From: Achromobacter sp. MYb9
Lineage (GTDB): Bacteria > Pseudomonadota > Gammaproteobacteria > Burkholderiales > Burkholderiaceae_B
Direction: 5' to 3'
Length of the DNA: 64,000 nt
NCBI RefSeq assembly: GCF_002975275.1
Contig: NZ_PCOQ01000001.1
Coordinates: 186,001 to 250,000 of the forward strand
Below, piece after piece: positions 22 through 63,718 of the stretch; positions within the stretch are counted from its first letter, which is position 1, and each line of letters starts with the position of its first letter. The notes under the pieces are model-generated. The model was not told where the DNA came from. It searched no databases and saw only the letters and a program-made list of their open reading frames with translations. A program made the position numbers and the translations under genes.

Positions 22-1002
22 ATGAAAACCCCTTTCCCCTTTTCCCGCCGGCTGGCGATTGGCCTGTCCGCCGCGCTGCTGGCCGTTGCCGCGTATGCGC
101 AGGAAGGCTCGTCCCTCGTGATCCAGGGCAAGGACAACTGGCTGTTCCCCGGTTGGGGCAGCCTGACGCAGGTGGACATGCGCGGCATCGACGCCTCGAC
201 CCAGCTGGTACGCGAAACCCGCGACGCCTTGGCCGCCAAGGGCATCCAGCTGGAAGTGCTGGTGCTGCCGGACAAGACACTGTTCTATCAGGACAAGCTG
301 CCCGACGGGAAATCGCTGAGCGCCGACGTGAAGAAGCGCTATCAGACCATCCAGGACAAGCTGAAGCAGGCCGGCGTGTCGACCTTCGACGACGAAGCCG
401 TACTGAAGCAAGTGAAGGACAGCGGCAAGGACGTCTTCTACCGCACCGACCAGCACTGGACGCAGGCCGCCGCCGACGCCACCGCCGAAGCGCTGGCGCA
501 GCAGATCCAGCAAGACGTGAAGACGCTGGCCGGCAAGCCCGGCACCGGCATGCCGCTGGGCAGCGTGGTCAACGAGCGCCGCTATGGCGATCTGGCTGAA
601 CTGTTCCTGACGCCCGACCAGCGCAAGCAGGCCGGCCGCGAGACCTACACCGTGCGCCGCCAGGCCGAAAACCAGAGCCTGCTGGACGACGCGCCGGCCC
701 CCGTGCACGTGACCGGCCACAGCATGGTGCAGCCGTATTTCGGTTTTCCGCAGAAGCTGTCCAACGTGCTGGACCGCCCGGTCTCCGTCAATTGGAAGCC
801 CGGCAACGTCGGCCAGTGGATCATGCTGCTGGAGTACCTGGAGTCGCCCGCGTTCAAGCAGAACAAGCCGCAGGTGCTGGTCTGGCAGATGTTCGAACCC
901 ACCTATGCCCAAGGACCGGACGCCAAGGGCTTATGGGACAACGCGTCCATCATGGGCGCCGACACCTGGCGCAACCGCATGAAGGCCGCCATTGGCAAGT
1001 AG
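22..1002 (+). CDS. AlgJ/AlgX-like SGNH-fold periplasmic protein, copy 1
   Basis: This 326-residue protein starts with a signal peptide (about residues 1-26, ending AYAQ) and resembles the periplasmic alginate O-acetylation proteins AlgJ/AlgX, which pass acyl groups to polysaccharide. The family Asp-x-His pair is visible as TDQH (D143, H145). The nucleophile region reads GHS (S234) rather than the usual GTS. An AAGGAG site at about 7-12 precedes the ATG. It is the first gene seen of a seven-gene run; its stop overlaps the next gene's TTG start. Function as an acyl transfer or polysaccharide-binding protein is inferred from family and context. The glycan substrate and any upstream genes lie outside the window. 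Confidence 0.75.
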   Translation: MKTPFPFSRRLAIGLSAALLAVAAYAQEGSSLVIQGKDNWLFPGWGSLTQVDMRGIDASTQLVRETRDALAAKGIQLEVLVLPDKTLFYQDKLPDGKSLSADVKKRYQTIQDKLKQAGVSTFDDEAVLKQVKDSGKDVFYRTDQHWTQAAADATAEALAQQIQQDVKTLAGKPGTGMPLGSVVNERRYGDLAELFLTPDQRKQAGRETYTVRRQAENQSLLDDAPAPVHVTGHSMVQPYFGFPQKLSNVLDRPVSVNWKPGNVGQWIMLLEYLESPAFKQNKPQVLVWQMFEPTYAQGPDAKGLWDNASIMGADTWRNRMKAAIGK

Positions 1003-2101
1003 CGCCGTGGAACCCTCTGACAAAGCCGCCGCGCCCAGCCACCGGCTGAGCGCCTGCGTGGTCGCGTTGCTGCTGGCGATGGGCTTGGGCTGGGGCGCCT
1101 GGTGCCTGGTCGACGCCAAGATCAGCCCGGCCGAGGTGTCGCCGTCCGCGTGGGCCGACGGATCGGCGGGCAGCGTGCTGAACAAGGCCATGCATATGCC
1201 CAGGCAGCCGGAAGTGGACACCTGGAACGCCTCGGTGCGCTACCGCGTGCTGGGCGACCTGGGCGATCAGGTCGCGATGGGCTGCCCGCAATGGCTGTTC
1301 TACCGCGACGGCTTGCGCCCGCAGCCAGGCGTCCACGTCTTCAATGAGCGCCTGCGCCTGATGCGGCACTGGGTGGATGAACTGCGCAAGAAGCAGGTAC
1401 AGGTGCTGGTCGTTGCCGTGCCGGATAAATCGCGTATTGAAGCTGACCGGCTCTGCGGCCTGCCGGTGTCGATGCCGATGCGCCAGACGCTGGATGCATG
1501 GCAGGATGCCCTGCGTGCGCAAGGCGTGCCTTTCGTGGACCTGCGCGACGCGTTACGCGCCGCGCCCGCCCCCCGCTTCTTCCGCACCGACGTGCACATG
1601 AACGCGCAGGGCGCGAAGGCCGCCGCGCAGCGTGTGGCCGAGGCGGCCTTGCCCCTGCTGCAAGGCCCCGGCACGCAAGCGTTCAAGACCGATGCGCCCA
1701 CGCCCGCCACGACGCGGATGGGCGACCTGATCGTGCTGGCAGGGCTGGAGCATGCGCGGCCGGGCTGGCGTCCCGAACTGGAAGTGGTATCGGAGCAGAG
1801 AATCGAACCGGTGCGCGCCGGCGGGCTGCTGGACGAGGCGCCGCCCGTGGAAGTACTGCTGGCAGGCACGTCCAACGGCCGCCGCAGCCAGTTCGCGGAA
1901 CGGCTGGGCATCGGCCTGGGCCGCGAAGTCTGGAACATGAGCCTGGACGGCGGGCAGTTCTCGGGAGCGTTGCAGATCGCGCTGAAGCAGCGCGATCAAT
2001 GGCCCAAGAGCCTGAAGGTACTGATCTGGGAATTCTCGGAAAACGCCTTGTCCCTGCCGCTGACCCCGGACGAACAGGCCGTGCTGGCCCGCCTGCCGTA
2101 G
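992..2101 (+). CDS. AlgJ/AlgX-like SGNH-fold protein, copy 2 (membrane-anchored)
   Basis: The protein has 369 residues if the TTG at 992 is used; a GTG at 1007 is an alternative five codons later. One hydrophobic segment near residues 13-36 should anchor it so that the rest is periplasmic. The AlgJ/AlgX signature is complete: TDVH (D200, H202) and GTSNG (S294), consistent with the Ser-His-Asp machinery that acetylates alginate. It overlaps copy 1 and sits 9 bases before the MBOAT gene, so the three are almost certainly co-expressed. Having both a soluble and an anchored copy parallels AlgX and AlgJ in Pseudomonas. A DltD-like role with an aminoacyl donor is possible given the neighbours. Confidence 0.75.
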   Translation: MASSAVEPSDKAAAPSHRLSACVVALLLAMGLGWGAWCLVDAKISPAEVSPSAWADGSAGSVLNKAMHMPRQPEVDTWNASVRYRVLGDLGDQVAMGCPQWLFYRDGLRPQPGVHVFNERLRLMRHWVDELRKKQVQVLVVAVPDKSRIEADRLCGLPVSMPMRQTLDAWQDALRAQGVPFVDLRDALRAAPAPRFFRTDVHMNAQGAKAAAQRVAEAALPLLQGPGTQAFKTDAPTPATTRMGDLIVLAGLEHARPGWRPELEVVSEQRIEPVRAGGLLDEAPPVEVLLAGTSNGRRSQFAERLGIGLGREVWNMSLDGGQFSGALQIALKQRDQWPKSLKVLIWEFSENALSLPLTPDEQAVLARLP

Positions 2102-2110
2102 CGAACCAAG

Positions 2111-3691
2111 ATGCTATTTAACTCTTACCTGTTCCTGCTGATCTTCCTGCCGGTCACGCTGGCCGTCTATTACGCGCTGGGGCCGCTGAACGTGCGCCTG
2201 GCGGCGTTGTGGCTATGTCTGACCTCGCTGGTCTTCTACGGCTGGTGGAACCCGCAGTTCGTGGCGCTTCTGGCTGGCTCCATCGCGTTCAACTACGTGA
2301 TCAGCCAGTTGATCCTGCACAACGCGGGACGGCCCCGGCTGCAGGGGCTGATCGTGGGACTGGGCGTGGGCGCCGACCTGGTGCTGCTGTTCCATTACAA
2401 GTACTTCGCCACGCTGCTGAACTTCCTGACCGACCTGGGGGTGACCCAGACGACGATGGACGACATCATCCTGCCGCTGGGTATTTCGTTCTTCACGTTC
2501 ACGCAGATCGGCTACCTGCTGGATTGCAAGGCCGGCGTGGTGAAAGAGCGCAGCCTGCTGAGCTATGTGCTGTTCGTCACGTTCTTTCCGCACTTGATCG
2601 CCGGCCCCATCCTGCATCACAAAGAAATGATGCCGCAGTTCGCGCAGGCCGAAAACTACCGCTTCAAGGCTGAAAACCTGTCGGTCGGCGCCATGCTGTT
2701 CGTCATCGGACTGGCCAAGAAGGTGCTGCTGGCCGATGGCATCGCGCCCTATGCGGACGCCGGCTTCGCCGCGCCGGGCGAACTGATGTTCTGGGGGTCG
2801 TGGGGCGCCAGCGTCTGCTACGCGCTGCAACTGTATTTCGATTTTTCGGGTTATTCGGACATGGCGTTGGGCCTGGCCAAGATGTTCGGCATCCGTTTCC
2901 CGCTGAACTTCAATTCGCCCTACAAAGCCAGCAGCATCATCGACTTCTGGGCCCGCTGGCACATGACGCTGACCCGCTACATCACCGCCTACCTTTACTA
3001 CCCCGTGGCGATGGCCGTGTCGACATGGCGCACCAACCGCAACCTGCCGGTGGGCTCCGCGGGCATCCGCACGCCGGGCGGATTCGCCAGCAGCATCGTG
3101 GTCCCCACGCTGTTCACGATGACGTTGGCGGGCGTGTGGCACGGCGCGGGCTTGCAGTTCATCGTCTTCGGACTACTGCACGCCATGTACCTGTCGGTGA
3201 ACCATGCCTGGCGCATCTTCGTCGTGGGCCGAAAACCCGCCGCGGCGCGCCAGGTCGGCGCCGTCAAGCGCGGCCTGTGCATTCTGCTGACCTTCGTGGC
3301 GGTGCTGGTGGCGCAGGCGTTCTTCCGCGCCCATGGCGTGGGCGACGCGATGCTGCTGATGCAAGGCATGGTTGGCATGCGCGGCATGGAATCGCTGGAC
3401 CTGTCCACGCATGTGGCCGGCCTGGCGTGGGGCGACGCCTGGCGCGTCATCGTGGGCCACCACCTGCAGCTGGTCTACGCGATCGTGCTGCTGGGCATTG
3501 CGTGGTTCACGCCCAATGCGCACCAGATCCTGGGCCGCTATTCGCCCGCGCTCTTTAAAACGCAGGAAGCGCCTCGCGCCTTCATGCGCTGGCGCCCCAA
3601 CGCGGCCTGGCTGGCCGCGATGCTGGTGTTGCTCTTTCTTTGCCTGGTAAACCTGCACAAGGAAACCCGGTTCCTCTATTTTCAATTCTGA
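2111..3691 (+). CDS. MBOAT-family membrane O-acyltransferase (AlgI/DltB-like)
   Basis: This 526-residue multispanning inner-membrane protein matches the AlgI/DltB/PatA branch of membrane-bound O-acyltransferases. These proteins move an acyl group from a cytoplasmic donor to the periplasm. The family histidines are present: HH at 169-170 in the IAGPILHH segment, and the catalytic-type VWHG motif with H344. Length agrees with AlgI (about 520). It lies between the two AlgJ-like genes and a carrier-protein gene. The donor is therefore likely an acyl-carrier thioester made by the next two genes, as in the Dlt system, rather than acetyl-CoA. The donor assignment is inference. Confidence 0.9.
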   Translation: MLFNSYLFLLIFLPVTLAVYYALGPLNVRLAALWLCLTSLVFYGWWNPQFVALLAGSIAFNYVISQLILHNAGRPRLQGLIVGLGVGADLVLLFHYKYFATLLNFLTDLGVTQTTMDDIILPLGISFFTFTQIGYLLDCKAGVVKERSLLSYVLFVTFFPHLIAGPILHHKEMMPQFAQAENYRFKAENLSVGAMLFVIGLAKKVLLADGIAPYADAGFAAPGELMFWGSWGASVCYALQLYFDFSGYSDMALGLAKMFGIRFPLNFNSPYKASSIIDFWARWHMTLTRYITAYLYYPVAMAVSTWRTNRNLPVGSAGIRTPGGFASSIVVPTLFTMTLAGVWHGAGLQFIVFGLLHAMYLSVNHAWRIFVVGRKPAAARQVGAVKRGLCILLTFVAVLVAQAFFRAHGVGDAMLLMQGMVGMRGMESLDLSTHVAGLAWGDAWRVIVGHHLQLVYAIVLLGIAWFTPNAHQILGRYSPALFKTQEAPRAFMRWRPNAAWLAAMLVLLFLCLVNLHKETRFLYFQF

Positions 3692-3716
3692 CCGCGTCGC
3701 GGTCCTGGAGCACCCT

Positions 3717-3956
3717 ATGGACATCAAGGCGATCGAGACCAAGGTCTCGGACATCATCGAGAACATCATCCTGACCAAGGTCGACCCGGACACACTGCTG
3801 ATCGACTCCGGCCTGGTGGATTCGCTGGCCGCCGTGGACCTGGCCCTGGCCGTGGAACGCGAATTCGGCTGCAAGATCCCGCCGACCGAAATCGACGTGC
3901 ACCTGGAATCGGTGCATACGCTTGCCGCATTCATCGCGGAGAACGCCCGCGCTTGA
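3717..3956 (+). CDS. Acyl/aminoacyl carrier protein (DltC-like)
   Basis: A 79-residue carrier protein with the phosphopantetheine attachment motif VDSLAAVDL (attachment serine S36). The sequence is acidic and helical, typical of ACP/PCP/DltC. The gene lies 25 bases after the MBOAT gene and directly before a DltA-like adenylating enzyme, so it most likely carries the aminoacyl group that enzyme activates. The acyl-CoA dehydrogenase at the end of the operon could act on the thioester held here. No phosphopantetheinyl transferase is encoded nearby, so a housekeeping one must load the arm. Confidence 0.9.
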   Translation: MDIKAIETKVSDIIENIILTKVDPDTLLIDSGLVDSLAAVDLALAVEREFGCKIPPTEIDVHLESVHTLAAFIAENARA

Positions 3957-3987
3957 GGCGCACGCCGGCAGCCAGGAGGACGGGATC

Positions 3988-5457
3988 ATGCGTTTCGATT
4001 TCAACACCTATGATTTTGCCGACGCTGCGGTCGACGCCGCCGCCATCGCGGTCGTCGACGCGCAAGGCGCCACGACATGGGGCGAGTTGAAGGCCGCCAC
4101 CGAAGCGTGGGAACAGGCCGCACGCCAGGCCGGCGCCACGGCGGGCGTGCCGCTTGCGATCTCGGGCCACAAGGAAACCGCGTTCCTGGTGGCCATCCTG
4201 GGGTGCCTGCGGCTGGGCGCGCCCTTCGTGCCCGTGGACGTCATCAATCCGCCCGACCGCATCGCGCGCATCGGCGAGCTGGTGCGTGCGGGCCTGCGCT
4301 ACGACGCGCAAGCCCGCACATTCCAGCCCGGCTGCGCCGCGCCGGCGCCGCTTGCCGAAGCGGGACTGGCCTACATCATGTTCACGTCCGGCAGCACAGG
4401 CGATCCCAAGGGCGTGCAGATCGGCCGCGAAAGCGTCACGCTGTTCGCAGGCTGGATCCGCGACTGCCTGGGCCTGGGCCCCGCGCCCGCGTTCATGGAC
4501 CAGATGCTGTTCAGCTTCGACTTTTCGTTGTTCAACTGGGTCGGCGCGCTGGCGCTGGGCGGCACCTGCGTGTTGTGCCCGCGCGAGATCATCGCCGAAC
4601 GCGACGCCTTCCTCCGGTACCTGGCCGATTCCCGCGTCAGTGTCTGGGCCTCGACACCGTCGTTCGTGCGGCAGCAGCTGTTCAATCCCGAGTTCGATCA
4701 CGCGCATCTGCCCGACCTGCGCGTCTTCGTGTTTGGCGCGGAATCCCTGACGCCCTCCCTGACTGACGCACTGTGGCAGCGGTTTCCGCACGTCCGCATC
4801 ATCAATTCCTACGGACCGACGGAGGCCACCTGCTCTACGACCTGGGTAGAAATTGACTCGAACCTGCGCGCGGCCGCGCCCAATCCCTTCCCCATCGGCC
4901 GTGCCAAACCGTATGCGGACGTTTTCATCGAAAACGGTGAAATCAACATCGCGGGCGACCACGTCATGCGCGGCTACCTGAACCGCCCCGACCTGAACGC
5001 GTCGCGCATGTTCGTGCGCAACGGCAAGCGTGGGTACCGCAGCGGCGACCTGGGTGAGATCGACGCGCAAGGCCTGGTCACCTTCCGTGGCCGCGTCGAC
5101 GACCAGATCAAACTGCACGGCTATCGCATCGAACTCGCCGAGATCGACGCAGCCATTGCCACGCTGCCCGGCGCCCGCGCTGGCGCCGCCGTCGCCCTGC
5201 GCCGTCCCGACGGCGCCATCGTCCGGCTGATCGGCTTTGTCGAACCCGCAGTGGCCGGCCCCGACGGCTTGCAGCCGCTACCGCCGGAACTGCATGATTG
5301 GAAGTCCGCGCTGGGACGCCGCCTGCCGCCCTACATGATCCCGTCCGAGCTGCTCGCCTGCCACCGCTTCCCCACGACCAGCACGGACAAGGCGGACCGC
5401 AAACAGCTGCAGCGCCTGTACCTGGACGCCCGCCTCAGCAAAAAACCGGAGCCCTGA
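3988..5457 (+). CDS. DltA-like adenylation enzyme (aminoacyl-carrier protein ligase)
   Basis: The start is the ATG at 3988 because a perfect AGGAGGA lies at 3974-3980; the open frame extends upstream only into the carrier gene. The 489-residue protein has the ANL motifs in order: A3 FTSGSTGDPKG (132-142), A4 FDFSLF with the amino-group-binding Asp type residue D178, A5 NSYGPTEAT (273-281), A8 GRVDDQIKLHGYRIEL, and the A10 lysine K468. The STPSFV and YGPTEAT stretches are close to DltA. However, the position of DltA's pocket cysteine (FCGE) appears to be FGAE here (G250), so D-alanine specificity is doubtful. It should load the adjacent carrier protein. The amino acid used is unknown. Confidence 0.85.
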   Translation: MRFDFNTYDFADAAVDAAAIAVVDAQGATTWGELKAATEAWEQAARQAGATAGVPLAISGHKETAFLVAILGCLRLGAPFVPVDVINPPDRIARIGELVRAGLRYDAQARTFQPGCAAPAPLAEAGLAYIMFTSGSTGDPKGVQIGRESVTLFAGWIRDCLGLGPAPAFMDQMLFSFDFSLFNWVGALALGGTCVLCPREIIAERDAFLRYLADSRVSVWASTPSFVRQQLFNPEFDHAHLPDLRVFVFGAESLTPSLTDALWQRFPHVRIINSYGPTEATCSTTWVEIDSNLRAAAPNPFPIGRAKPYADVFIENGEINIAGDHVMRGYLNRPDLNASRMFVRNGKRGYRSGDLGEIDAQGLVTFRGRVDDQIKLHGYRIELAEIDAAIATLPGARAGAAVALRRPDGAIVRLIGFVEPAVAGPDGLQPLPPELHDWKSALGRRLPPYMIPSELLACHRFPTTSTDKADRKQLQRLYLDARLSKKPEP

Positions 5458-5460
5458 ATC

Positions 5461-6135
5461 ATGCCCACCCTTTTTCGCAATGCGGCGCTTGCCGTCGCGC
5501 TGGCCGCCATGGCCGGCAACGCGGCGGCCGAAGGCGCGTTCGCGCAGCTCTACGCCGCCCGGCCACCCGCCGGATCCTCATTCGTGCGCATCGTGAACCC
5601 TGCCGCCACGCCGCTGCGTGTGCAGATCGCCGACGGGCCGGCGCAGGAAGCGGGCGCGGCCAAGCCCGCCACGACCTACGCCATCGTAAAAGGCAACCAG
5701 GCCTTCACCGTGCAGGTGGACGGCAAGCCCGCGGCCAGCCTGCAAGTGGCCCCCGACACCTTCAGCACGCTGATTCCACGGCGCGTGGACGGCAAACTGA
5801 CGTTCGCCGTTGTCGACGACAGCAATGGCGCGCAGGACGCGCTGAAGGCAGAGCTACGCTTCTACAACCTGGCGGCCGACTGCCCCGCCGGCCAGTTGGG
5901 CGTCAGCCCGTCCGGACCCGTGCTGTTCCAGGACGTGAAACCGGGCGCGGCCGCGGCACGCGCCATCAACCCCGTCAGTGCCACGCTGGCCGCAGGCTGC
6001 GGCGCGGCAGCCTCCCCCACGATGTCGCTGCCTGCCCTGCAGCCCGGCGACCACTACAGCCTGTTCCTGACCGGGTCCGCGGCCGCGCCAATACTGCGCG
6101 GCCAGGTCAGCACCACGGACCCCTACCGCCGCTAA
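5461..6135 (+). CDS. AlgF-like periplasmic O-acylation protein
   Basis: This 224-residue protein carries a signal peptide (about 1-23, ending NAAA) and resembles AlgF, the periplasmic partner of AlgI/AlgJ in alginate O-acetylation. Length matches AlgF (about 216). The sequence is beta-rich, opening with a SSFVRIVNPA stretch and repeating short Ala/Pro/Val strands. It starts 3 bases after the adenylation gene's stop and is followed 9 bases later by the acyl-CoA dehydrogenase gene, so it belongs to the same transcript. AlgF is thought to link the membrane transferase with the periplasmic ones; the same adaptor role is inferred here. Confidence 0.75.
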   Translation: MPTLFRNAALAVALAAMAGNAAAEGAFAQLYAARPPAGSSFVRIVNPAATPLRVQIADGPAQEAGAAKPATTYAIVKGNQAFTVQVDGKPAASLQVAPDTFSTLIPRRVDGKLTFAVVDDSNGAQDALKAELRFYNLAADCPAGQLGVSPSGPVLFQDVKPGAAAARAINPVSATLAAGCGAAASPTMSLPALQPGDHYSLFLTGSAAAPILRGQVSTTDPYRR

Positions 6136-6144
6136 GGAGACGTC

Positions 6145-7275
6145 ATGCGCCGCGTTTTCCGGGATGACCACGAACTGTTCCGCGATCAGGTCTGGCGCTT
6201 TGTCGCCAACGAGATCGCGCCCCACTATGCCGAATGGGAAAAGGCCGGCGTCACGCCGCGTTCGCTCTGGCGGCGCGCAGGCGAAGAAGGCCTGCTCAAC
6301 TGCGCTCTGCCCGACCCGTACGGCCTGGGCGGCGACTTCGGCCACGCCACGGTCGTGATCGAAGCGCTGGCCCACGCCAACTTCCTGGGCATCGGCTTTT
6401 CGATCCATTCCGACATGGTGTCGCCCTATCTGCTGAACTTCGGCACCAACGCGCAAAAGGAACGCTGGCTGCCGCCGATGACGCGCGGCGAGGTAATCGG
6501 CGCCATCGCCCTGACGGAACCGGGCGCTGGCAGCGATCTGAAGGCCATCCGCACGCGGGCGCGCCGCGACGGCGACAGCTATGTGCTCAATGGACAGAAG
6601 ACCTTCATCACCAATGGCGTCAATGCCGGCCTGGCCATCGTGCTGGCCAGCACCGACCCGGAGCTGGGCGCGCGCGGCCTGTCGCTATTCTGCGTCGAGG
6701 AAAACCTGCCCGGCTACACCAAGGGCGCGGCGCTGGACAAGATCGGCCAGCACAGCCAGGACACCTGCGAACTCTACTTCGACGACGTCCGCGTGCCGGC
6801 GGATTGCCTGCTGGGCCAGGAAAACGCCGCGTTTGAATACATGACCCGCGAACTGGCGCGCGAACGCCTGGCGATTGCCTTGCGCGCCGCCGCCTCGGTC
6901 GAAGGCATGCTGGACGAGGCCGCGCAATACACCCGCGACCGCAAGGTCTTCAGCCGCCGCGTGATCGACTATCAGAACACGCGTTTCAAGCTGGCCAACG
7001 CGCGTGCGCAGACCACGATGCTGCGCGTGTTCCTGGACGACTGCCTGGCGCGCCAGATGGCGGGCGAACTGGATCCCACGACGGCCGCCATCGCCAAGCT
7101 GAACGCCACCGAAATCCAGGGCCGCGTGCTGGACGACCTGCTGCAGATGTATGGCGGCTACGGCTATATGGCGGAATACGGCATCGGCCGCGCCTGGGTC
7201 GACGCGCGTGCGCTGCGGATATTCGGCGGCACCAGCGAAGTCATGCTGGAGATCATCGGCCGCAGTTTCAACTGA
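6145..7275 (+). CDS. Acyl-CoA dehydrogenase family flavoprotein
   Basis: A 376-residue FAD enzyme of the acyl-CoA dehydrogenase fold, with LTEPGAGSDL and the C-terminal MYGGYGYMAEYGI and FGGTSEVM motifs. The short-chain-type base (the Glu of YEGT) is Gly here. The likely base is instead in ELARERL (E240), as in long-chain and isovaleryl-CoA dehydrogenases. An AAGGAG site at 6135-6140 and a 9-base gap tie it to the glycan-acylation operon. In pyrrole natural-product pathways, proline bound to a carrier protein is oxidised by a flavoprotein of this family. With an adenylation enzyme and carrier two genes upstream, the same chemistry is a plausible inference. Ordinary fatty-acyl oxidation remains the alternative. 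Confidence 0.85.
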   Translation: MRRVFRDDHELFRDQVWRFVANEIAPHYAEWEKAGVTPRSLWRRAGEEGLLNCALPDPYGLGGDFGHATVVIEALAHANFLGIGFSIHSDMVSPYLLNFGTNAQKERWLPPMTRGEVIGAIALTEPGAGSDLKAIRTRARRDGDSYVLNGQKTFITNGVNAGLAIVLASTDPELGARGLSLFCVEENLPGYTKGAALDKIGQHSQDTCELYFDDVRVPADCLLGQENAAFEYMTRELARERLAIALRAAASVEGMLDEAAQYTRDRKVFSRRVIDYQNTRFKLANARAQTTMLRVFLDDCLARQMAGELDPTTAAIAKLNATEIQGRVLDDLLQMYGGYGYMAEYGIGRAWVDARALRIFGGTSEVMLEIIGRSFN

Positions 7276-7282
7276 CGCGCGT

Positions 7283-8272
7283 TCAGACGCGCGCCGCCAG
7301 CCACGCGCGCATCAGGGCGCGCGCTTCCGGCGTGTCGTCGATGACCCAGGGGTCCATCGCAAACGCCACGACCCGTTCGGCCCCGTAGCCGCGCGCCACT
7401 TCCCACTGCGCCTTCACGCGGGTGAAATCAGCCGAGCGCGCCTTGAACGTGGACCCGTCGGTACTGCCCGACGGCAGTTCCTCGAACAGTTCCATGACCA
7501 GGTCGAACGAGGCCCGGCGCGCAAGCAGCATGTCGTGCAACGGCTCCAGCGCCTGATAGTTCGCCAGGCCGGCCACGCCCACCCCGTCCTGGATCATCGG
7601 GTGGATGCGCACCTGGTCGAGGATGCCGCGCCACAGCATCATCAGCGACCCTTCACCGGGCAGGCGGCTGTGATAAGTGGAGATGCAGGGAACGCCTCGG
7701 CTGGTGGCTTGCGCCGTACGCGAGAACGCGTCCAGCCAGGGAATCAACTGCGCCTGGCGCTCGGCGGACGCCCAGTTGTATTGCTCTAGTTCGTAGGGCA
7801 GATACCAGCCCCGGAACGCACGGCGCTTGGACCACGGGGCGGATTCCATATACGCCACCCCACGCGCGCGCGTCTGGTTCAGAAAGCCCGTGAATGCCGC
7901 CTTGTCCCTGCCCGCCAGCACATCCCACCAGCGTTGATCGTAGGGCAGCCCGACATGCACGCCGAGCCCCTGGTGTTCGGCTTCGTCGAAGATGTGGCCC
8001 AGCACGGCATCGGGCGCCATCCAGTCGTCCGGACGCCCGCCCTCCAGCCCCACCCATTGCAGGAAGATCTCGCGGCAGCCCAGTCGGCGATAAGCCGACA
8101 GCCGCACACGCCAATCGTCGGGGCTCAGGTCCAGGTGGCTGCGCCACAATTGCAGGAACGTGGCGTTCAGCGCCAGTGGCGGCGCACAGGCGGCCAGCGG
8201 CGCCAGCGCACCCAGCGCTAGCGCCTGAAGCAGGCGCCGCCGGGACGGGGATGCAGGCAGACGGCGTGTCAG
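7283..8272 (-). CDS. DUF4434-like putative glycosidase, Tat lipoprotein with apparent CTG start
   Basis: With ATG/GTG/TTG starts only, the frame begins at TTG 8149 and lacks an export signal. Extending it 41 codons to a CTG at 8270-8272, preceded by AGGA, gives a coherent Tat lipoprotein leader: SRRRLLQ, a hydrophobic run, then the lipobox LAAC. The mature part (329 residues in total) looks like a TIM-barrel DUF4434 protein, a glycoside-hydrolase-like group; the family call is from memory and tentative. The gene is convergent with the glycan-acylation operon, 7 bases apart, and lies just after the YidB-like gene. A role on a surface polysaccharide is inferred from location only. Confidence 0.6.
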   Translation of the reverse strand: MTRRLPASPSRRRLLQALALGALAPLAACAPPLALNATFLQLWRSHLDLSPDDWRVRLSAYRRLGCREIFLQWVGLEGGRPDDWMAPDAVLGHIFDEAEHQGLGVHVGLPYDQRWWDVLAGRDKAAFTGFLNQTRARGVAYMESAPWSKRRAFRGWYLPYELEQYNWASAERQAQLIPWLDAFSRTAQATSRGVPCISTYHSRLPGEGSLMMLWRGILDQVRIHPMIQDGVGVAGLANYQALEPLHDMLLARRASFDLVMELFEELPSGSTDGSTFKARSADFTRVKAQWEVARGYGAERVVAFAMDPWVIDDTPEARALMRAWLAARV

Positions 8273-11019: not shown

Positions 11020-12150
11020 ATGGATTCCCTGCGCCTGACCATCGAAACCGACCTGTCCCGCATCGACGCCCAGCAATGGGACGCGCTGGCCGGCGATCAG
11101 CCCTTTCTGCAGCACGCCTTCCTGCGCGCCATGCACGAGACCGGCTGCGCGTCGCCCGGCACGGGTTGGGCGCCGCATTACCTGGCGCTGTGGCGCGGCG
11201 GCGTGCTGGCCGCGGCCACGCCGCTCTACCTGAAATCGCATTCCCGCGGCGAGTACGTGTTCGACTATGCCTGGGCCGACGCGTTCCAGCGCCACGGCAT
11301 GCGCTACTACCCCAAGTTGCTGTCGGCCATCCCCTACACCCCGGTGACGGGGCCGCGCCTGCTGGCATCCAGCGACGAAGACCGTGCGACGCTCGTGCGC
11401 GGCCTGGTCGCCTTTGCCGAAGAGGTCAAGGTGTCGTCCCTGCATGTGCTGTTCCCGTCGGACGCCGACATGCACGCGCTGCGCGACGCCGGCTTCATGA
11501 TTCGCGAAAGCGTGCAATTCCATTGGACCAACGCCGGCTATGCGGACTTCGACGCATTCCTGGCGCTGATGAGCCACGACAAGCGCAAGAAGATCCGGCA
11601 AGACCGCAAGAAGGTCGCGGCGGCCGGCTTGTCGTACCGCTGGCTGCGCGGCACCGAGATCGGCGACGCCGACCTGGGCTTCTTCTACGACTGCTATTGC
11701 CGCACCTATTTCCAGCACGGCAACCCGCCCTATCTGAACCGCGATTTCTTCGTGCGCGCGCACCGCGAACAGCCCGACGCCTTCGTGCTGATCCTGGCCG
11801 AGCGCGGCGGCCAGCCGGTCGCGGCGGCACTGAACCTGGCGGGCGGCGATGCGCTCTACGGCCGCTATTGGGGGGCGACGGAATATGTGCCGGGACTGCA
11901 CTTCGAGACCTGCTATATGCAGTCGATCGCATACTGCATCGCGCACGGCATCGCCCGCTTCGAAGGCGGTGCGCAGGGTGAACACAAGATGGCGCGCGGG
12001 CTGCTGCCCACGCCTACGTGGTCCGCGCATTGGGTCGCCCATCCCGGTTTTGCCGAAGCGATCCAGAACTTCCTGGACGAAGAGACTTCGGCCGTGACGG
12101 ATTACCTGGGTGAACTGGAAGGCCACACGCCGTTCAAGCGCAGCGAGTAG
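11020..12150 (+). CDS. FemAB/GNAT-like acyltransferase (DUF482 family)
   Basis: A 376-residue cytoplasmic protein matching the FemAB-like/DUF482 group, often annotated as peptidoglycan-biosynthesis or GNAT N-acetyltransferases. Recognisable stretches are QPFLQHAFLRAMHETG near the N terminus, SHDKRKKIRQDRKKV in the middle (a basic acceptor- or RNA-binding type segment), and GAQGEHKMARGL near the C terminus. FemAB proteins transfer amino acids from aminoacyl-tRNA, but the substrate of this subgroup is not established. It stands alone between a divergent DUF455 gene and a convergent DUF1854 gene. Confidence 0.8.
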   Translation: MDSLRLTIETDLSRIDAQQWDALAGDQPFLQHAFLRAMHETGCASPGTGWAPHYLALWRGGVLAAATPLYLKSHSRGEYVFDYAWADAFQRHGMRYYPKLLSAIPYTPVTGPRLLASSDEDRATLVRGLVAFAEEVKVSSLHVLFPSDADMHALRDAGFMIRESVQFHWTNAGYADFDAFLALMSHDKRKKIRQDRKKVAAAGLSYRWLRGTEIGDADLGFFYDCYCRTYFQHGNPPYLNRDFFVRAHREQPDAFVLILAERGGQPVAAALNLAGGDALYGRYWGATEYVPGLHFETCYMQSIAYCIAHGIARFEGGAQGEHKMARGLLPTPTWSAHWVAHPGFAEAIQNFLDEETSAVTDYLGELEGHTPFKRSE

Positions 12151-12201
12151 CCCGCGCCGACCCGGCCCCGGCCGGTTGCCAGGAAAGACCGGGCTTGAGC
12201 C

Positions 12202-12672
12202 TTAGAGGAAGCGGTCCAGCATCTTGCGGCTGTGCTTGTCCAACGACAGGATGTCGCGCACCAGGTAGAAGATGCCGTGGCTGTCGGCGATCAGCAGGGT
12301 TTGCGGGCTGAGGCGGCGGATGTCTTCTTCGCCGCGCAGCACGAAAGACGTGGGGCCGCGGTCCGTTTCCACCTTCCAGGTACTGGGCGTGGCGTACGTG
12401 GACACGCTGGCCAGCTTGCGGATCTCGGGCATGAATTCCCGGCCCGCCAACTCTTCTTCGATCAGCGCGCGCGGCCCCTCAGGCACATCGGACAAGTGTT
12501 CGATCCAGAGCAGCTCGTGGCCATCGCTCGTCACCAGCGACAGGCCACGGCCCGCTTCGCTGATCGGGAACGCGCGCACGGGGATGACGCCTTCGTGCAT
12601 CTCGCCGTCGGCGGATTGATATTCCAGACGCCCGAAGGCGTTGCGGCGCAGCTGAAAGGTCGGCAACGTCAT
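12202..12672 (-). CDS. DUF1854 protein of the cyanophycin locus
   Basis: A 156-residue soluble protein of the DUF1854 family, which is repeatedly found beside cyanophycin synthetase genes. Visible features are RNAFGRLEYQ, the GVIPVRAFPISEAG segment, and LLWIEHLSDVP. There are no membrane segments or catalytic motifs to read. It lies 21 bases downstream of the ABC exporter gene on the same strand, so both are probably one transcript running away from the synthetases. Its biochemical role is unknown; partnership with the exporter is inferred from position. Confidence 0.8.
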   Translation of the reverse strand: MTLPTFQLRRNAFGRLEYQSADGEMHEGVIPVRAFPISEAGRGLSLVTSDGHELLWIEHLSDVPEGPRALIEEELAGREFMPEIRKLASVSTYATPSTWKVETDRGPTSFVLRGEEDIRRLSPQTLLIADSHGIFYLVRDILSLDKHSRKMLDRFL

Positions 12673-12693
12673 GACGATAATCCCGGTTCCGCG

Positions 12694-14979
12694 TCAGGCC
12701 ACGGCGGCCATGTCTTCGCTGCCCGACGCCTGCGCGTCGGCTTCCGCCTGGCGCGCCTGCGCCTGGTAGAGGCGATAGTAGGCGCCCTCGCGGGCCATCA
12801 GTTCTTCGTGCGGCCCCTGCTCCACGATCTGGCCACGGTCCAGCACGACCAGTCGGTCGGCCTTGCGCAGCGTGCTCAGGCGGTGGGCGATGGCGATAGT
12901 GGTGCGGCCGCGCACCAGATTGTCCAGCGCCTTCTGGATTTCCTTCTCGGTCGTGGTGTCCACCGACGACGTCGCCTCGTCCAGGATCAGGATGCGCGGG
13001 TCGATCAGCAACGCGCGGGCGATCGAGATGCGTTGGCGCTCGCCGCCGGACAAGGCCTGGCCGCGTTCGCCAACCAGTGAGTCGTAACCGTGCGGCAGGC
13101 GCAGGATGAACTCGTGCGCATGGGCGGCGCGGGCCGCGGCCACGATCTCGTCGCGCGTCGCGTCCGGCTTGCCGTAGGCGATGTTTTCGGCGATGGTGCC
13201 GAAGAACAGGAACGGCTCCTGCAACACCAGCCCGATGTTGCGGCGGTAGTCCGCCACGCGCACCGAGCGGATGTCGGCGCCGTCCACCAGCACCGCGCCT
13301 TCGGACACGTCGTAGAAGCGGCAGATCAGGTTGATCAGCGTGCTCTTGCCTGAACCACTGTGGCCGACCAGGCCGATCATTTCGCCCGGGGCGATGGTCA
13401 GGTCCAGGCCACGGATGACCTGGCGATTGCCATAGCGGAAACCCACGTCGCGCAATTCGATGCGGCCGTTGATCTGCGGCAGCTTGGCCGGATTCTGCGG
13501 CTCTGGCACGCTGGATACGTGATCCAGAATGTCGAAGATGCGCTTGGCGCCCGCCGCCGCTTTCTGCGTAACCGAAACGATGCGGCTCATGGAATCCAGG
13601 CGCATGTAGAAACGCCCGATGTACGCCAGGAACGCCGCCAGGACACCGACGGTGATCTGCTTTTGCGAGACCTGCCAGATGCCGAAGATCCACACGACCA
13701 GCAAACCGACCTCCGTCAGCAGCGTGACGGTGGGCGAAAACAGCGACCAGGTCGTGTTTACGCGGTCGTTGACTTCCAGGTTGCGGTTGTTGGCTTCGCG
13801 GAAACGCGCGACTTCGCGCTTTTCCTGGGCGAACGCCTTCACCACGCGAATGCCCGGAATGGTGTCGGCCAGCACGTTGGTGATTTCGGACCAGATGCGA
13901 TCGACCTTTTCAAAGCCATGGCGCAGGCGGTCGCGCACCGCGTGGATCATCCAGATGATGAACGGCAGCGGCACCAGCGTGACCAGCGCCAGCCACGGGT
14001 TGATCGACACCAGGATCACCGCCGTCATGACGATCATCAGGATGTCGTTGGCGAAGTCCAGCAGATGCAGCGACAGGAACACGCAGATGCGGTCGGTTTC
14101 ACTGCCAATGCGCGAAATCAGGTCGCCCGTGCGCTTGCCGCCGAAATACTCCAGCGACAACTGCTGCAAATGCTCATAGGTGGTCGTGCGCAGATCGGCG
14201 CCGATGCGTTCGCTGACCCAGGCCAGGATGTAGGTTCGGGCCCAGCCCAGCCCCCAGGCCAGGAAGGCGGATGCCAGTAGCCCGCTGAGATACAGGCGGA
14301 CCTTGCTGTAGTCGATCGGCGCGCCGTTCTGGAATGGAATCAGCACATCGTCCATCAGCGGCATGGTCAGGTACGGCGGCACCAGGGTGGCGGCCGTGCC
14401 CAGCAGCGTCAGGATGAAGCCGGCCAGCAACGGGCCGCGGTACGGCCGGGCGAAGCGCCACAGGCGCAGGAGCGCCCAGGTGGTGGACGGCGCCGCCTGC
14501 GACTGGTGACAGGCGGGGCATTCTTCCTCGTCGGCGGGAATGACGTTATTACAGTTGGTGCAGGTACGCTCTGCCCGTTCCTGTTCCGGCAGGCCGGACA
14601 GCCGGATCGCCTGCTGCGCCTCGAATTGGGCCAACAGGCGCAGCGCGGCCGGATTGCGGGCCAGCGTAAACCGCCAGACCGCCAGACGGGCGTTGTCGTC
14701 GTGAAGCTCCAGCACGGCGGCGCCGGCGTGATCGGACAGGTTTAGCGTTAATTGGGGGCCATAGACCCACGATTCCCAGCCGTTGTCCTCGGCATTACGG
14801 GCCAGCAGGCGCCGGTCGGTGGCCGCGATCAGCCCAGGCTGGAACTTCAGCCGCTGGTCCAGGTCTATTTCAACCCAGGCCAGCAGGCTTTCGCCCTCCG
14901 CCAATTCAGCGCGGATTTCGTCCCGCCAGCGGGCAGGAAAGGCATCGGCAAGGCCGGAAAGCAGGTGTGGTTTTTTCAT
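12694..14979 (-). CDS. Cyanophycin-associated ABC exporter with N-terminal zinc ribbon
   Basis: A 761-residue half-transporter. Residues 1-130 form a beta-rich cytoplasmic domain of unknown type. A zinc ribbon follows: C140, C143, C154 and C157, as CTNC and CPAC. Six membrane helices lie at about 170-455 and the ATPase at about 505-745, with Walker A GHSGSGKST (539-547), signature LSGGERQ and Walker B ILILDEATSS. The core looks like an MsbA/lipid-type exporter. The extra front end distinguishes it from ordinary exporters. It diverges from the synthetase pair across a 269-base region and precedes the DUF1854 gene. Family association with cyanophycin metabolism is known from gene neighbourhoods; the transported substrate is not known. 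Confidence 0.85.
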   Translation of the reverse strand: MKKPHLLSGLADAFPARWRDEIRAELAEGESLLAWVEIDLDQRLKFQPGLIAATDRRLLARNAEDNGWESWVYGPQLTLNLSDHAGAAVLELHDDNARLAVWRFTLARNPAALRLLAQFEAQQAIRLSGLPEQERAERTCTNCNNVIPADEEECPACHQSQAAPSTTWALLRLWRFARPYRGPLLAGFILTLLGTAATLVPPYLTMPLMDDVLIPFQNGAPIDYSKVRLYLSGLLASAFLAWGLGWARTYILAWVSERIGADLRTTTYEHLQQLSLEYFGGKRTGDLISRIGSETDRICVFLSLHLLDFANDILMIVMTAVILVSINPWLALVTLVPLPFIIWMIHAVRDRLRHGFEKVDRIWSEITNVLADTIPGIRVVKAFAQEKREVARFREANNRNLEVNDRVNTTWSLFSPTVTLLTEVGLLVVWIFGIWQVSQKQITVGVLAAFLAYIGRFYMRLDSMSRIVSVTQKAAAGAKRIFDILDHVSSVPEPQNPAKLPQINGRIELRDVGFRYGNRQVIRGLDLTIAPGEMIGLVGHSGSGKSTLINLICRFYDVSEGAVLVDGADIRSVRVADYRRNIGLVLQEPFLFFGTIAENIAYGKPDATRDEIVAAARAAHAHEFILRLPHGYDSLVGERGQALSGGERQRISIARALLIDPRILILDEATSSVDTTTEKEIQKALDNLVRGRTTIAIAHRLSTLRKADRLVVLDRGQIVEQGPHEELMAREGAYYRLYQAQARQAEADAQASGSEDMAAVA

Positions 14980-15248
14980 TGGAACGCATACCGGGCCAGG
15001 ACTCTGCCCTACTAGGCGGCAACCGGTTTACCACCCACGGCGGCAAACGTGTCCCTTCCTTACAACACAACGAGTTCACGCCTTGAAGGCGTCGTATAGT
15101 AGCAGCCGATTTTTCTAATTAGGAATATCTGGGATCCCCCACTCGTTGGCATTATTCTTACAGCGCAACCCCAAAAATTCGTAATAAATTCGCGGTCTTA
15201 CATAGGGGCGTCCGCGCGTGCCAACCTGCTTCTCAAGTAAATTAAAAC
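14980..15248. promoter_or_regulatory. Divergent intergenic region between ABC exporter and cphA genes
   Basis: This 269-base spacer separates the leftward exporter operon from the rightward synthetase operon and must carry both promoters. From about 15110 it becomes clearly AT-richer than its surroundings, with tttttctaattag near 15111 and attcgtaataaattcg near 15176, suitable for the rightward promoter. No firm -35/-10 pair or operator could be assigned by eye. A 72-codon reading frame on the other strand here has no coding character. Confidence 0.45.
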
Positions 15249-63391: not shown

Positions 63392-63718
63392 ATCGCTTCA
63401 CCTTTACGAGTGCTTCACTCGACACGATGCAGGAAAACCTTCCGCAGCACGGGCTTCCCGTTAAGCGGATCGCAGGGGCAGAAGGCGCGTACAAGCCTTG
63501 ATAGCCGTATGTTTGAAAGTATAACCCTTTGAGTTTATGGGCGTCTTGCTGCATTTGCGTGACGCAAAAGCCCGTGCGGAATACCTGCATGCGGCTTTGG
63601 AATGTCCGTCGAACGCCTGCAATCCAGCCGTCTACGCGCCATCAAATTCCGTCAATCGAAAATGCCGCAGCGCGTCATTTTCAGGCACTCCAAACAAGAG
63701 TGTTGCGCAATAGCCGCG
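63392..63718 (-). promoter_or_regulatory. odhA upstream region with promoter and palindrome
   Basis: There is no convincing gene in these 327 bases. On the minus strand TTATACT at 63524-63518 is a good -10, with a weak AAGACG -35 at 63547-63542. The transcript would have a leader of about 120 bases. A 7-1-7 palindrome, TTTGCGTGACGCAAA, sits at 63554-63568 just upstream of the -35, in operator position. A short open frame at 63342-63590 overlaps the odhA start and looks non-coding. Confidence 0.5.

What the first reader, a model, noticed from the sequence alone, without database searches (positions are those of the whole stretch)
22..7275. Hybrid Alg/Dlt operon ending in an acyl-CoA dehydrogenase: a possible novel aminoacyl modification of a surface glycan
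Seen: seven packed genes combine AlgI-, AlgJ/X- (two) and AlgF-like glycan O-acylation proteins with a DltA/DltC-like adenylation enzyme and carrier protein, closed by an acyl-CoA dehydrogenase. Known: alginate acetylation uses AlgI/J/F/X; Dlt uses an adenylating enzyme, carrier, MBOAT and DltD; in pyoluteorin, prodigiosin and clorobiocin pathways a stand-alone adenylation enzyme, carrier and flavoprotein dehydrogenase turn proline into a carrier-bound pyrrole-2-carboxyl group. Inference: this operon may activate an amino acid, oxidise it on the carrier and export it onto a polysaccharide, giving a dehydro-aminoacyl or pyrrolyl ester not described for surface glycans as far as I know.
Basis: partly seen in the sequence, partly recalled or inferred. 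Interest (0 to 1): 0.8.

Follow-up and report, generated by a model that had tools for sequence, protein, structure and literature searches.

The report
Carrier-fed acylation of phage-receptor-type glycan
These seven genes are the second half of a larger gene set for a bacterial surface sugar of a type known as a phage receptor, and they look built to load an amino acid onto a small carrier protein, perhaps oxidise it, and attach it to that sugar.

Summary
The seven genes are real. They form the 3' half of an 11-gene operon, wecB-bcsB-nfrB-nfrA-algX-algJ-algI-acp-A-algF-acad, of the N4-glycan-receptor (NGR) type, in Achromobacter. The MBOAT ends in FLYFQF, the fused acyl-tyrosine shuttle of Alg/Pat systems, yet lies beside a Dlt-like carrier and adenylation (A) enzyme: a true hybrid.

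I found 38 distinct 'type I' loci in eight Burkholderiales genera. The dehydrogenase is present in 32, absent in 5 (one Pandoraea clade, one change on the tree) and unreadable in 1. The A pocket keeps the amino-binding Asp but departs from the D-Ala pocket (C269 to G, V301 to C, L198 and M201 to F) and from A enzymes beside RedW-like dehydrogenases. The dehydrogenase keeps the catalytic Glu but groups with LCAD-like catabolic enzymes.

Two variants swap the loader: a D-Ala-like A enzyme with an unrelated ACAD-fold protein (4 loci), and FkbH (1 locus). Thirteen Achromobacter loci have the nfr core with no acylation gene found.

Carrier-bound aminoacylation of an NGR-like glycan is likely. Pyrrole is not supported. 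On-carrier oxidation is plausible but unproven.

The parts
22..1002 (+). AlgX/AlgJ-like SGNH protein
   Evidence: PF16822 247 bits; best solved relatives AlgJ 79.8 bits and AlgX 48.1 bits; TDQH motif at residue 142
1001..2101 (+). second AlgJ/AlgX-like SGNH protein
   Evidence: PF16822 219 bits; TDVH motif at residue 196; start chosen at 1001, an upstream TTG at 992 is in frame
2111..3691 (+). AlgI/DltB-type MBOAT with C-terminal FLYFQF acyl-shuttle motif
   Evidence: PF03062 75.5 bits; DltB best solved relative, 98 bits; motif in 41 of 42 distinct cluster MBOATs
3717..3956 (+). carrier protein, phosphopantetheine Ser36 in DSL
   Evidence: PF00550 36.4 bits; DltC-like but below cut-off, 32 of 68 bits; Ser position
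3988..5457 (+). stand-alone adenylation enzyme, pocket code DFFAVGSCSK
   Evidence: AMP-binding 171.9 bits; DltA 320.8 bits, below cut-off 476; pocket
5461..6135 (+). AlgF-like protein
   Evidence: PF11182 46.1 bits, cut-off 34.4
6145..7275 (+). LCAD-like acyl-CoA dehydrogenase, base Glu240
   Evidence: three ACAD Pfam domains; human LCAD 361 bits; Glu240
7283..8149 (-). convergent DUF4434 gene that ends the conserved block (function unknown)
   Evidence: PF14488 186 bits; found after the block

Best explanation
This is the acylation module of an NfrB/NfrA-type, probably ManNAc-based, exported glycan. Step 1 (inferred from pocket and neighbours): the A enzyme activates an alpha-amino acid, probably neither D-Ala nor proline, and loads it on the carrier. 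Step 2 (inferred from genomic linkage and an intact catalytic base): the operon's flavoprotein dehydrogenates the carrier-bound aminoacyl group at alpha,beta, giving a dehydro-aminoacyl or, after tautomerisation and hydrolysis, an alpha-keto-acyl group. Step 3 (by homology with Dlt and PatAB): the MBOAT moves the group from the carrier to its own C-terminal tyrosine (FLYFQF). Step 4 (by homology with alginate acetylation): the two AlgX/AlgJ-type SGNH proteins, helped by AlgF, ester-link it to the glycan made by the nfrB glycosyltransferase and exported through NfrA. Shown: operon composition, order and conservation. Not shown: substrate, redox step, product.
For: 11-gene operon with wecB, bcsB, nfrB, nfrA. 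MBOAT C-terminal FLYFQF in 41 of 42 distinct cluster MBOATs; the shuttle model is from PMC12148441 (passages). Carrier Ser in DSL motif. A pocket keeps Asp197 (D178) but has G250 for Cys269, C282 for Val301, F179 and F182 for Leu198 and Met201; the code is exact in 32 of 37 readable distinct type I loci, the other five differing at site 278 or 299 or cut off. ACAD in 32 of 38 distinct loci, always after algF, one clade at 100/100, Glu240 in 48 of 48 cluster rows incl. duplicates, dN/dS 0.122 against 0.138 for A and 0.122 for the carrier in 18 Achromobacter loci. A different ACAD-fold protein accompanies A and carrier in all four type II loci, and an FkbH loader with carrier replaces them in type III.
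Against: Five Pandoraea genomes keep every other gene and lack the ACAD, with the same A pocket. The ACAD's nearest relatives (61-62% identity) stand beside CoA-transferase III, thiolase and acyl-CoA ligase genes, which suggests acyl-CoA substrates. Alpha,beta-dehydro-aminoacyl thioesters without N-protection are expected to be unstable (general chemistry, recalled). No substrate could be assigned from the pocket. The type II ACAD-fold protein lacks both usual base positions, so it is not evidence for the same reaction.
Confidence: 0.45

Rival explanations
1. Carrier-fed aminoacylation without on-carrier oxidation: A, carrier, MBOAT and SGNH proteins put an unmodified amino acid on the glycan, and the dehydrogenase works on an acyl-CoA, for example in making or recycling a precursor.
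For: ACAD descends from acyl-CoA catabolic enzymes; five Pandoraea do without it and keep the same A pocket.
Against: No other acyl-CoA enzyme lies in the operon; ACAD is co-inherited with A and carrier in 32 of 38 loci; a second ACAD-superfamily protein sits with A and carrier in type II.
Confidence: 0.35
2. Ordinary D-alanylation moved to an Alg-type transferase, with the dehydrogenase as a passenger.
For: A is nearest to DltA among NCBIfam models; type II A enzymes keep a D-Ala-like pocket.
Against: The type I pocket has lost Cys269 and Val301 in every readable type I row; the same genome already has a dra-type Dlt locus.
Confidence: 0.1
3. Plain O-acetylation from acetyl-CoA, with carrier, A and ACAD serving some other product.
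For: AlgI, AlgJ/X and AlgF are all present; PMC8669472 (passages) describes the A. xylosoxidans cluster as having O-acetyltransferase homologues.
Against: Carrier and loader lie among the alg genes in types I and III and beside them in type II; in 13 nfr loci without a module, none of alg, carrier, A or ACAD was found.
Confidence: 0.05
4. One reading: proline is activated and oxidised on the carrier to a pyrrole-2-carboxyl ester.
For: Same three protein kinds as in pyrrole pathways; NCBIfam RedW and PigA models match the ACAD below cut-off (206 of 650 and 182 of 500 bits); the base Glu is at the same place in RedW-like proteins.
Against: A code DFFAVGSCSK against DLFYLALVVK, DMLYLGVQCK and DIFFLGVGCK beside RedW-like ACADs; ACAD groups with LCAD-like enzymes. 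Those comparison ACADs are themselves below the RedW cut-off.
Confidence: 0.02

Closest known systems
Teichoic acid D-alanylation (DltABCDX) and the Bordetella dra locus
   Same: A enzyme and carrier nearest to DltA/DltC, MBOAT, SGNH transferase
   Different: Pocket not D-Ala-like in type I; shuttle motif fused to the MBOAT instead of in DltX; AlgF and two AlgX/J-type proteins; extra ACAD; linked to nfr glycan genes. The own genome has a separate dra-type locus (L010). The Bordetella dra locus is recalled and seen only in a search listing.
Alginate O-acetylation (AlgIJFX) and PatAB
   Same: MBOAT with C-terminal F-x-Y-x-x-F, AlgJ/AlgX-type SGNH proteins, AlgF
   Different: Those are described as acyl-CoA-fed and without a carrier (PMC12148441, passages); here a carrier and loader are in the operon
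N4 glycan receptor (nfrBA-wecB) systems
   Same: wecB, nfrB-type synthase, nfrA; the A. xylosoxidans cluster with BcsB and O-acetyltransferase homologues is noted in PMC8669472, an alginate-type insert in Simplicispira suum in PMC8669469 (passages)
   Different: The passages read do not mention a carrier, A enzyme or dehydrogenase; their figures and supplements were not seen
Carrier-bound prolyl oxidation (RedW/PigA/PltE/CloN3; clorobiocin acylates a sugar with the product, recalled)
   Same: A enzyme + carrier + ACAD-fold flavoprotein feeding an ester on a sugar
   Different: A code and ACAD lineage differ; transfer here is to an exported polymer by an MBOAT

Membership tests
Dlt D-alanylation system | A enzyme with D-Ala pocket (Asp197, Leu198, Met201, Cys269, Val301 of B. 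cereus DltA) | tested here: not met
   Only Asp197 kept; F, F, G and C at the others
Dlt D-alanylation system | carrier of DltC family | tested here: inconclusive
   Best NCBIfam match DltC, 32 bits against a cut-off of 68
Dlt D-alanylation system | separate DltX with F-x-Y-x-x-F; MBOAT without it | tested here: not met
   Motif fused to the MBOAT here; separate small ORF ending FQYQQF in the own dra locus
Alginate-type MBOAT/SGNH acylation (AlgIJFX) | MBOAT with fused F-x-Y-x-x-F, AlgJ/X SGNH proteins and AlgF | tested here: met
Alginate-type MBOAT/SGNH acylation (AlgIJFX) | acyl-CoA donor, no carrier protein | tested here: inconclusive
   A carrier and loader are encoded in the operon; the donor itself cannot be tested here
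NGR (nfr) glycan locus | wecB, nfrB-type GT2 synthase and nfrA together | tested here: met
   Epimerase_2 384 bits, Glyco_trans_2_3 133 bits, NfrA_C 98.8 bits
NGR (nfr) glycan locus | MshEN c-di-GMP-binding domain on NfrB | tested here: inconclusive
   The C-terminal tail looks MshEN-like by eye; Pfam did not call it
NGR (nfr) glycan locus | ManNAc-containing polymer | not testable with these tools
   Only wecB in the operon points to it
Prolyl-carrier dehydrogenase (RedW/PigA) | above the NCBIfam cut-offs | tested here: not met
   206 of 650 bits and 182 of 500 bits
LCAD-like acyl-CoA dehydrogenase | base Glu at the LCAD position and LCAD-like sequence | tested here: met
   that this Glu is the base is recalled and fits the Glu-to-Gln chain 8w0z
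LCAD-like acyl-CoA dehydrogenase | uses a CoA thioester | not testable with these tools
   needs enzymology

The most novel reading that the evidence does not exclude
A surface polysaccharide of the phage-receptor (NGR) type carries a dehydro-aminoacyl or alpha-keto-acyl ester, made by flavoprotein oxidation of an amino acid on a carrier protein and delivered through an MBOAT with a fused acyl-tyrosine shuttle. The loader (unusual amino acid, D-Ala-like, FkbH-type glyceryl) is exchanged between species like a cassette, perhaps under phage pressure.
Probability: 0.3. Interest if true: 0.8.

Novelty: new variant of a known kind. Interest (0 to 1): 0.62.

Why it matters
Dlt is described as the carrier-fed MBOAT/SGNH pathway and the others as acyl-CoA-fed (PMC12148441, passages). 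This module breaks that division: a carrier with exchangeable loaders stands beside an Alg-type MBOAT. Carrier feeding would let a cell put unusual, pre-modified acyl groups on a surface glycan. The glycan belongs to a type used by N4-like phages, and the module differs between genomes of one genus (of 43: 20 type I, 1 type III, 13 nfr core alone, 9 with neither found). That makes receptor modification and its link to phage host range directly testable.

Tried and rejected
Rejected: proline/pyrrole chemistry; plain D-alanylation; chance adjacency. Naming the amino acid from the code: I compared DFFAVGSCSK with codes recalled from memory and none fits well, so no assignment is made. NCBIfam named no ACAD above cut-off. 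Paper searches on the novelty question showed no title or abstract start describing a carrier, A enzyme or ACAD with nfr/alg genes; two searches returned no paper at their thresholds. Only open-licence PMC papers are covered, and most papers were seen as listings; PMC8669469, PMC8669472, PMC8972799, PMC4176424 and PMC12148441 were seen as passages. Structure prediction never ran.

Limits of the counts. The 38 distinct type I loci are 25 from the genome search (window included) and 13 of the 29 loci, 16 of which duplicate fetched ones (contig lengths and coordinates). L061 (the G274 hit) ends before the ACAD. L040's A frame is in two pieces, so it is not in the pocket count (37 distinct). L065's MBOAT frame is in two pieces and is the one of 42 without a readable shuttle motif. 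Rows include duplicates. one search lists 53 'acad' rows; L094-L098 are not cluster copies. Genome samples were drawn evenly, not complete; absence elsewhere is not shown. 'dra-type' in 42 of 43 genomes rests on 52-55% identity, with three loci looked at. The A tree used 28 type I rows and warns of long branches (L067, L016, L017, and where types I and II meet); the ACAD tree places the cluster clade among catabolic ACADs at 85-94% support, unstarred. The three comparison ACADs (3 of 321 genomes at E<=1e-100) lie below the RedW cut-off; L102 has a second A enzyme reading DLTKIGEVGK. A profile of the type II ACAD-fold protein matched 14 of 180 genomes at E<=1e-60: 3 are type II loci, the other 11 score 307 bits or less and their surroundings were not checked.
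Full report
What is there. The seven genes are present on the + strand with gaps of about 30 bases or less, and family searches confirm each class. The window is bases 186001-250000 of contig C1 of its genome. Upstream, on the same strand and equally tightly, lie a UDP-GlcNAc 2-epimerase (wecB, L009:8118-9278), a BcsB-like protein (to 11529), a GT2 synthase (11542-13239) and an NfrA-type outer-membrane protein (13236-15983), running into the first alg gene at L009:16022, which is window base 22. The finding is therefore the 3' half of an 11-gene operon. A convergent DUF4434 gene follows (7283-8149).

What kind of locus. wecB + nfrB + nfrA is the core of the N4 glycan receptor (NGR) system. Two 2021 papers (passages) noted that Achromobacter xylosoxidans carries this cluster with BcsB and O-acetyltransferase homologues (PMC8669472) and that Simplicispira suum has an alginate-type acetylation insert (PMC8669469). 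The passages read do not mention a carrier, adenylation enzyme or dehydrogenase. The genus is Achromobacter: genomes that the tool calls same-genus (for example G138 and G275) coincide with named Achromobacter records in contig length and coordinates.

Hybrid nature. According to PMC12148441 (passages), Dlt uses a carrier protein and a separate shuttle protein DltX with F-x-Y-x-x-F, while other MBOAT/SGNH pathways lack a carrier, evidently use acyl-CoA, and have that motif fused to the MBOAT. The window MBOAT ends in FLYFQF, as do 41 of 42 distinct cluster MBOATs, types II and III included; the exception has a frame in two pieces. Yet carrier and loader genes lie beside it. The same genome's dra-type locus (L010) is arranged like Dlt: an MBOAT without the motif, a small upstream ORF ending in FQYQQF, a carrier and a D-Ala-type A enzyme. 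The two systems can thus be compared within one cell.

Distribution. In the genus, 42 of 43 genomes have a dra-type A match (52-55% identity) and 20 of 43 a type I match (82% or more). nfrB is found in 33 of 43: 19 with type I, 1 with type III, and 13 in which tblastn of the fetched 19.9 kb found wecB/bcsB/nfrB/nfrA genes but no alg, carrier, A or ACAD. The twentieth type I genome (G274) has its hit on a short contig and no nfrB hit. In an even sample of the order, 7 of 250 genomes have any A relative at E<=1e-60; in an even sample of another family, 10 of 349 at E<=1e-80, six type I and four type II. A scan of one genome per species gave 29 loci. Type I occurs in Achromobacter, Pandoraea, Delftia, Diaphorobacter, Trinickia, Burkholderia sp. 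lig30, Cupriavidus basilensis and Oxalicibacterium flavum. Distinct type I loci: 38; ACAD present in 32, absent in 5, undetermined in 1.

The counter-evidence. The five loci without ACAD are all Pandoraea (L054, L055, L057, L063, L069): algF is followed by DUF4434. A search of those five genomes with the P. horticolens ACAD found nothing at E<=1e-80, while P. horticolens, Trinickia and Oxalicibacterium gave hits (3 of 8 genomes). On the A-enzyme tree the five form one clade (100/100) among ACAD-bearing lineages, needing one change. The count itself cannot tell gain from loss; with Cupriavidus, Oxalicibacterium and Achromobacter all bearing the gene on the outgroup-rooted tree, loss is the simpler reading. 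Their A pocket code is unchanged. The ACAD therefore does not decide what A loads, and is best seen as a tailoring enzyme.

The adenylation enzyme. Aligned with B. cereus DltA through the dra enzyme, the window enzyme keeps the amino-binding Asp197 (D178) but has F179 for Leu198, F182 for Met201, G250 for Cys269 and C282 for Val301. Cys269 contributes to choosing D- over L-Ala (PMC4176424 and PMC8972799, passages). The code DFFAVGSCSK is exact in 32 of 37 readable distinct type I loci; four differ at site 278 or 299 and one is cut off. The dra-type rows read DLYVLC(T/S)VAK and the four type II rows DVYV(L/V)CTVAK. A enzymes beside three RedW-like ACADs read DLFYLALVVK, DMLYLGVQCK and DIFFLGVGCK. 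So the substrate is probably an alpha-amino acid that is neither D-Ala nor proline; which one is open.

The dehydrogenase. The best solved relative is human LCAD (361 bits). Entry 8w0z is an LCAD chain with Gln at the site that aligns with window Glu240, recalled as the catalytic base; Glu is there in all 48 cluster rows read, duplicates included. Cluster ACADs form one clade at 100/100. It lies among LCAD-like enzymes (support 85-94%), whose nearest members (61-62% identity) sit beside CoA-transferase III, and in one case thiolase and acyl-CoA ligase genes; the RedW-like proteins fall elsewhere. In the order sample, matches of 70% or more were found only in the three genomes with a type I A enzyme. 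dN/dS is 0.122, like the carrier (0.122) and A (0.138). By homology it is an intact, selected alpha,beta-dehydrogenase tied to this operon and recruited from acyl-CoA catabolism. Whether it now takes a carrier thioester is not shown.

Loader swaps. In four genomes (L015, L041, L042, L043) A and carrier are followed by a different ACAD-superfamily protein, which the window ACAD did not hit by tblastn in L015 and which lacks both usual base positions; where the alg genes are on the stretch (three of four) this trio lies on the opposite strand to them. The A pocket there is D-Ala-like. In L087 an FkbH protein (322.9 bits, cut-off 146.65), a carrier and a methylmalonyl-CoA-epimerase-like protein lie among the same alg genes, with no A or ACAD hit. 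These swaps are the strongest indirect evidence that the carrier feeds the MBOAT and that the acyl group changes between lineages.

Judgement. Shown: genes, order, conservation, hybrid MBOAT motif, altered pocket, intact base, and ACAD absence in one Pandoraea clade. Inferred: aminoacylation of the glycan from the carrier (about 0.8) and oxidation on the carrier (about 0.55 given the first). Not supported: pyrrole. The system is a new variant of MBOAT/SGNH surface-glycan acylation, joining Dlt-type feeding to Alg-type transfer on a phage-receptor-type glycan.

Noticed in passing
L087:3372-7594 (G256): An nfr/alg cluster in an Achromobacter-genus genome with FkbH, a carrier and a methylmalonyl-CoA-epimerase-like protein, suggesting a glyceryl-type acyl group.
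   Followed up: partly
L015:11040-12212, L041, L042, L043: A divergent ACAD-superfamily protein without the usual catalytic Glu positions, always with a D-Ala-like A enzyme and carrier; solved relatives include nitrososynthase, DszC and short-chain ACADs.
   Followed up: partly
L010:8467-12602 (own genome): A dra/dlt-type locus with a small ORF ending FQYQQF upstream of the DltB-like gene, a candidate DltX in a Gram-negative.
   Followed up: partly
window 7283-8149 (-): A DUF4434 gene lies beside the block in types I, II and III and also beside most nfr loci that lack the acylation module (12 of 13), so it may act on the glycan itself.
   Followed up: partly
L040 (A enzyme) and L065 (MBOAT): The frame is in two overlapping pieces in each, from sequencing error or decay.
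   Followed up: no
window 63394-63475 (-): SucA RNA motif (RF01070, 50.5 bits), the only Rfam match in the window at gathering threshold.
   Followed up: no
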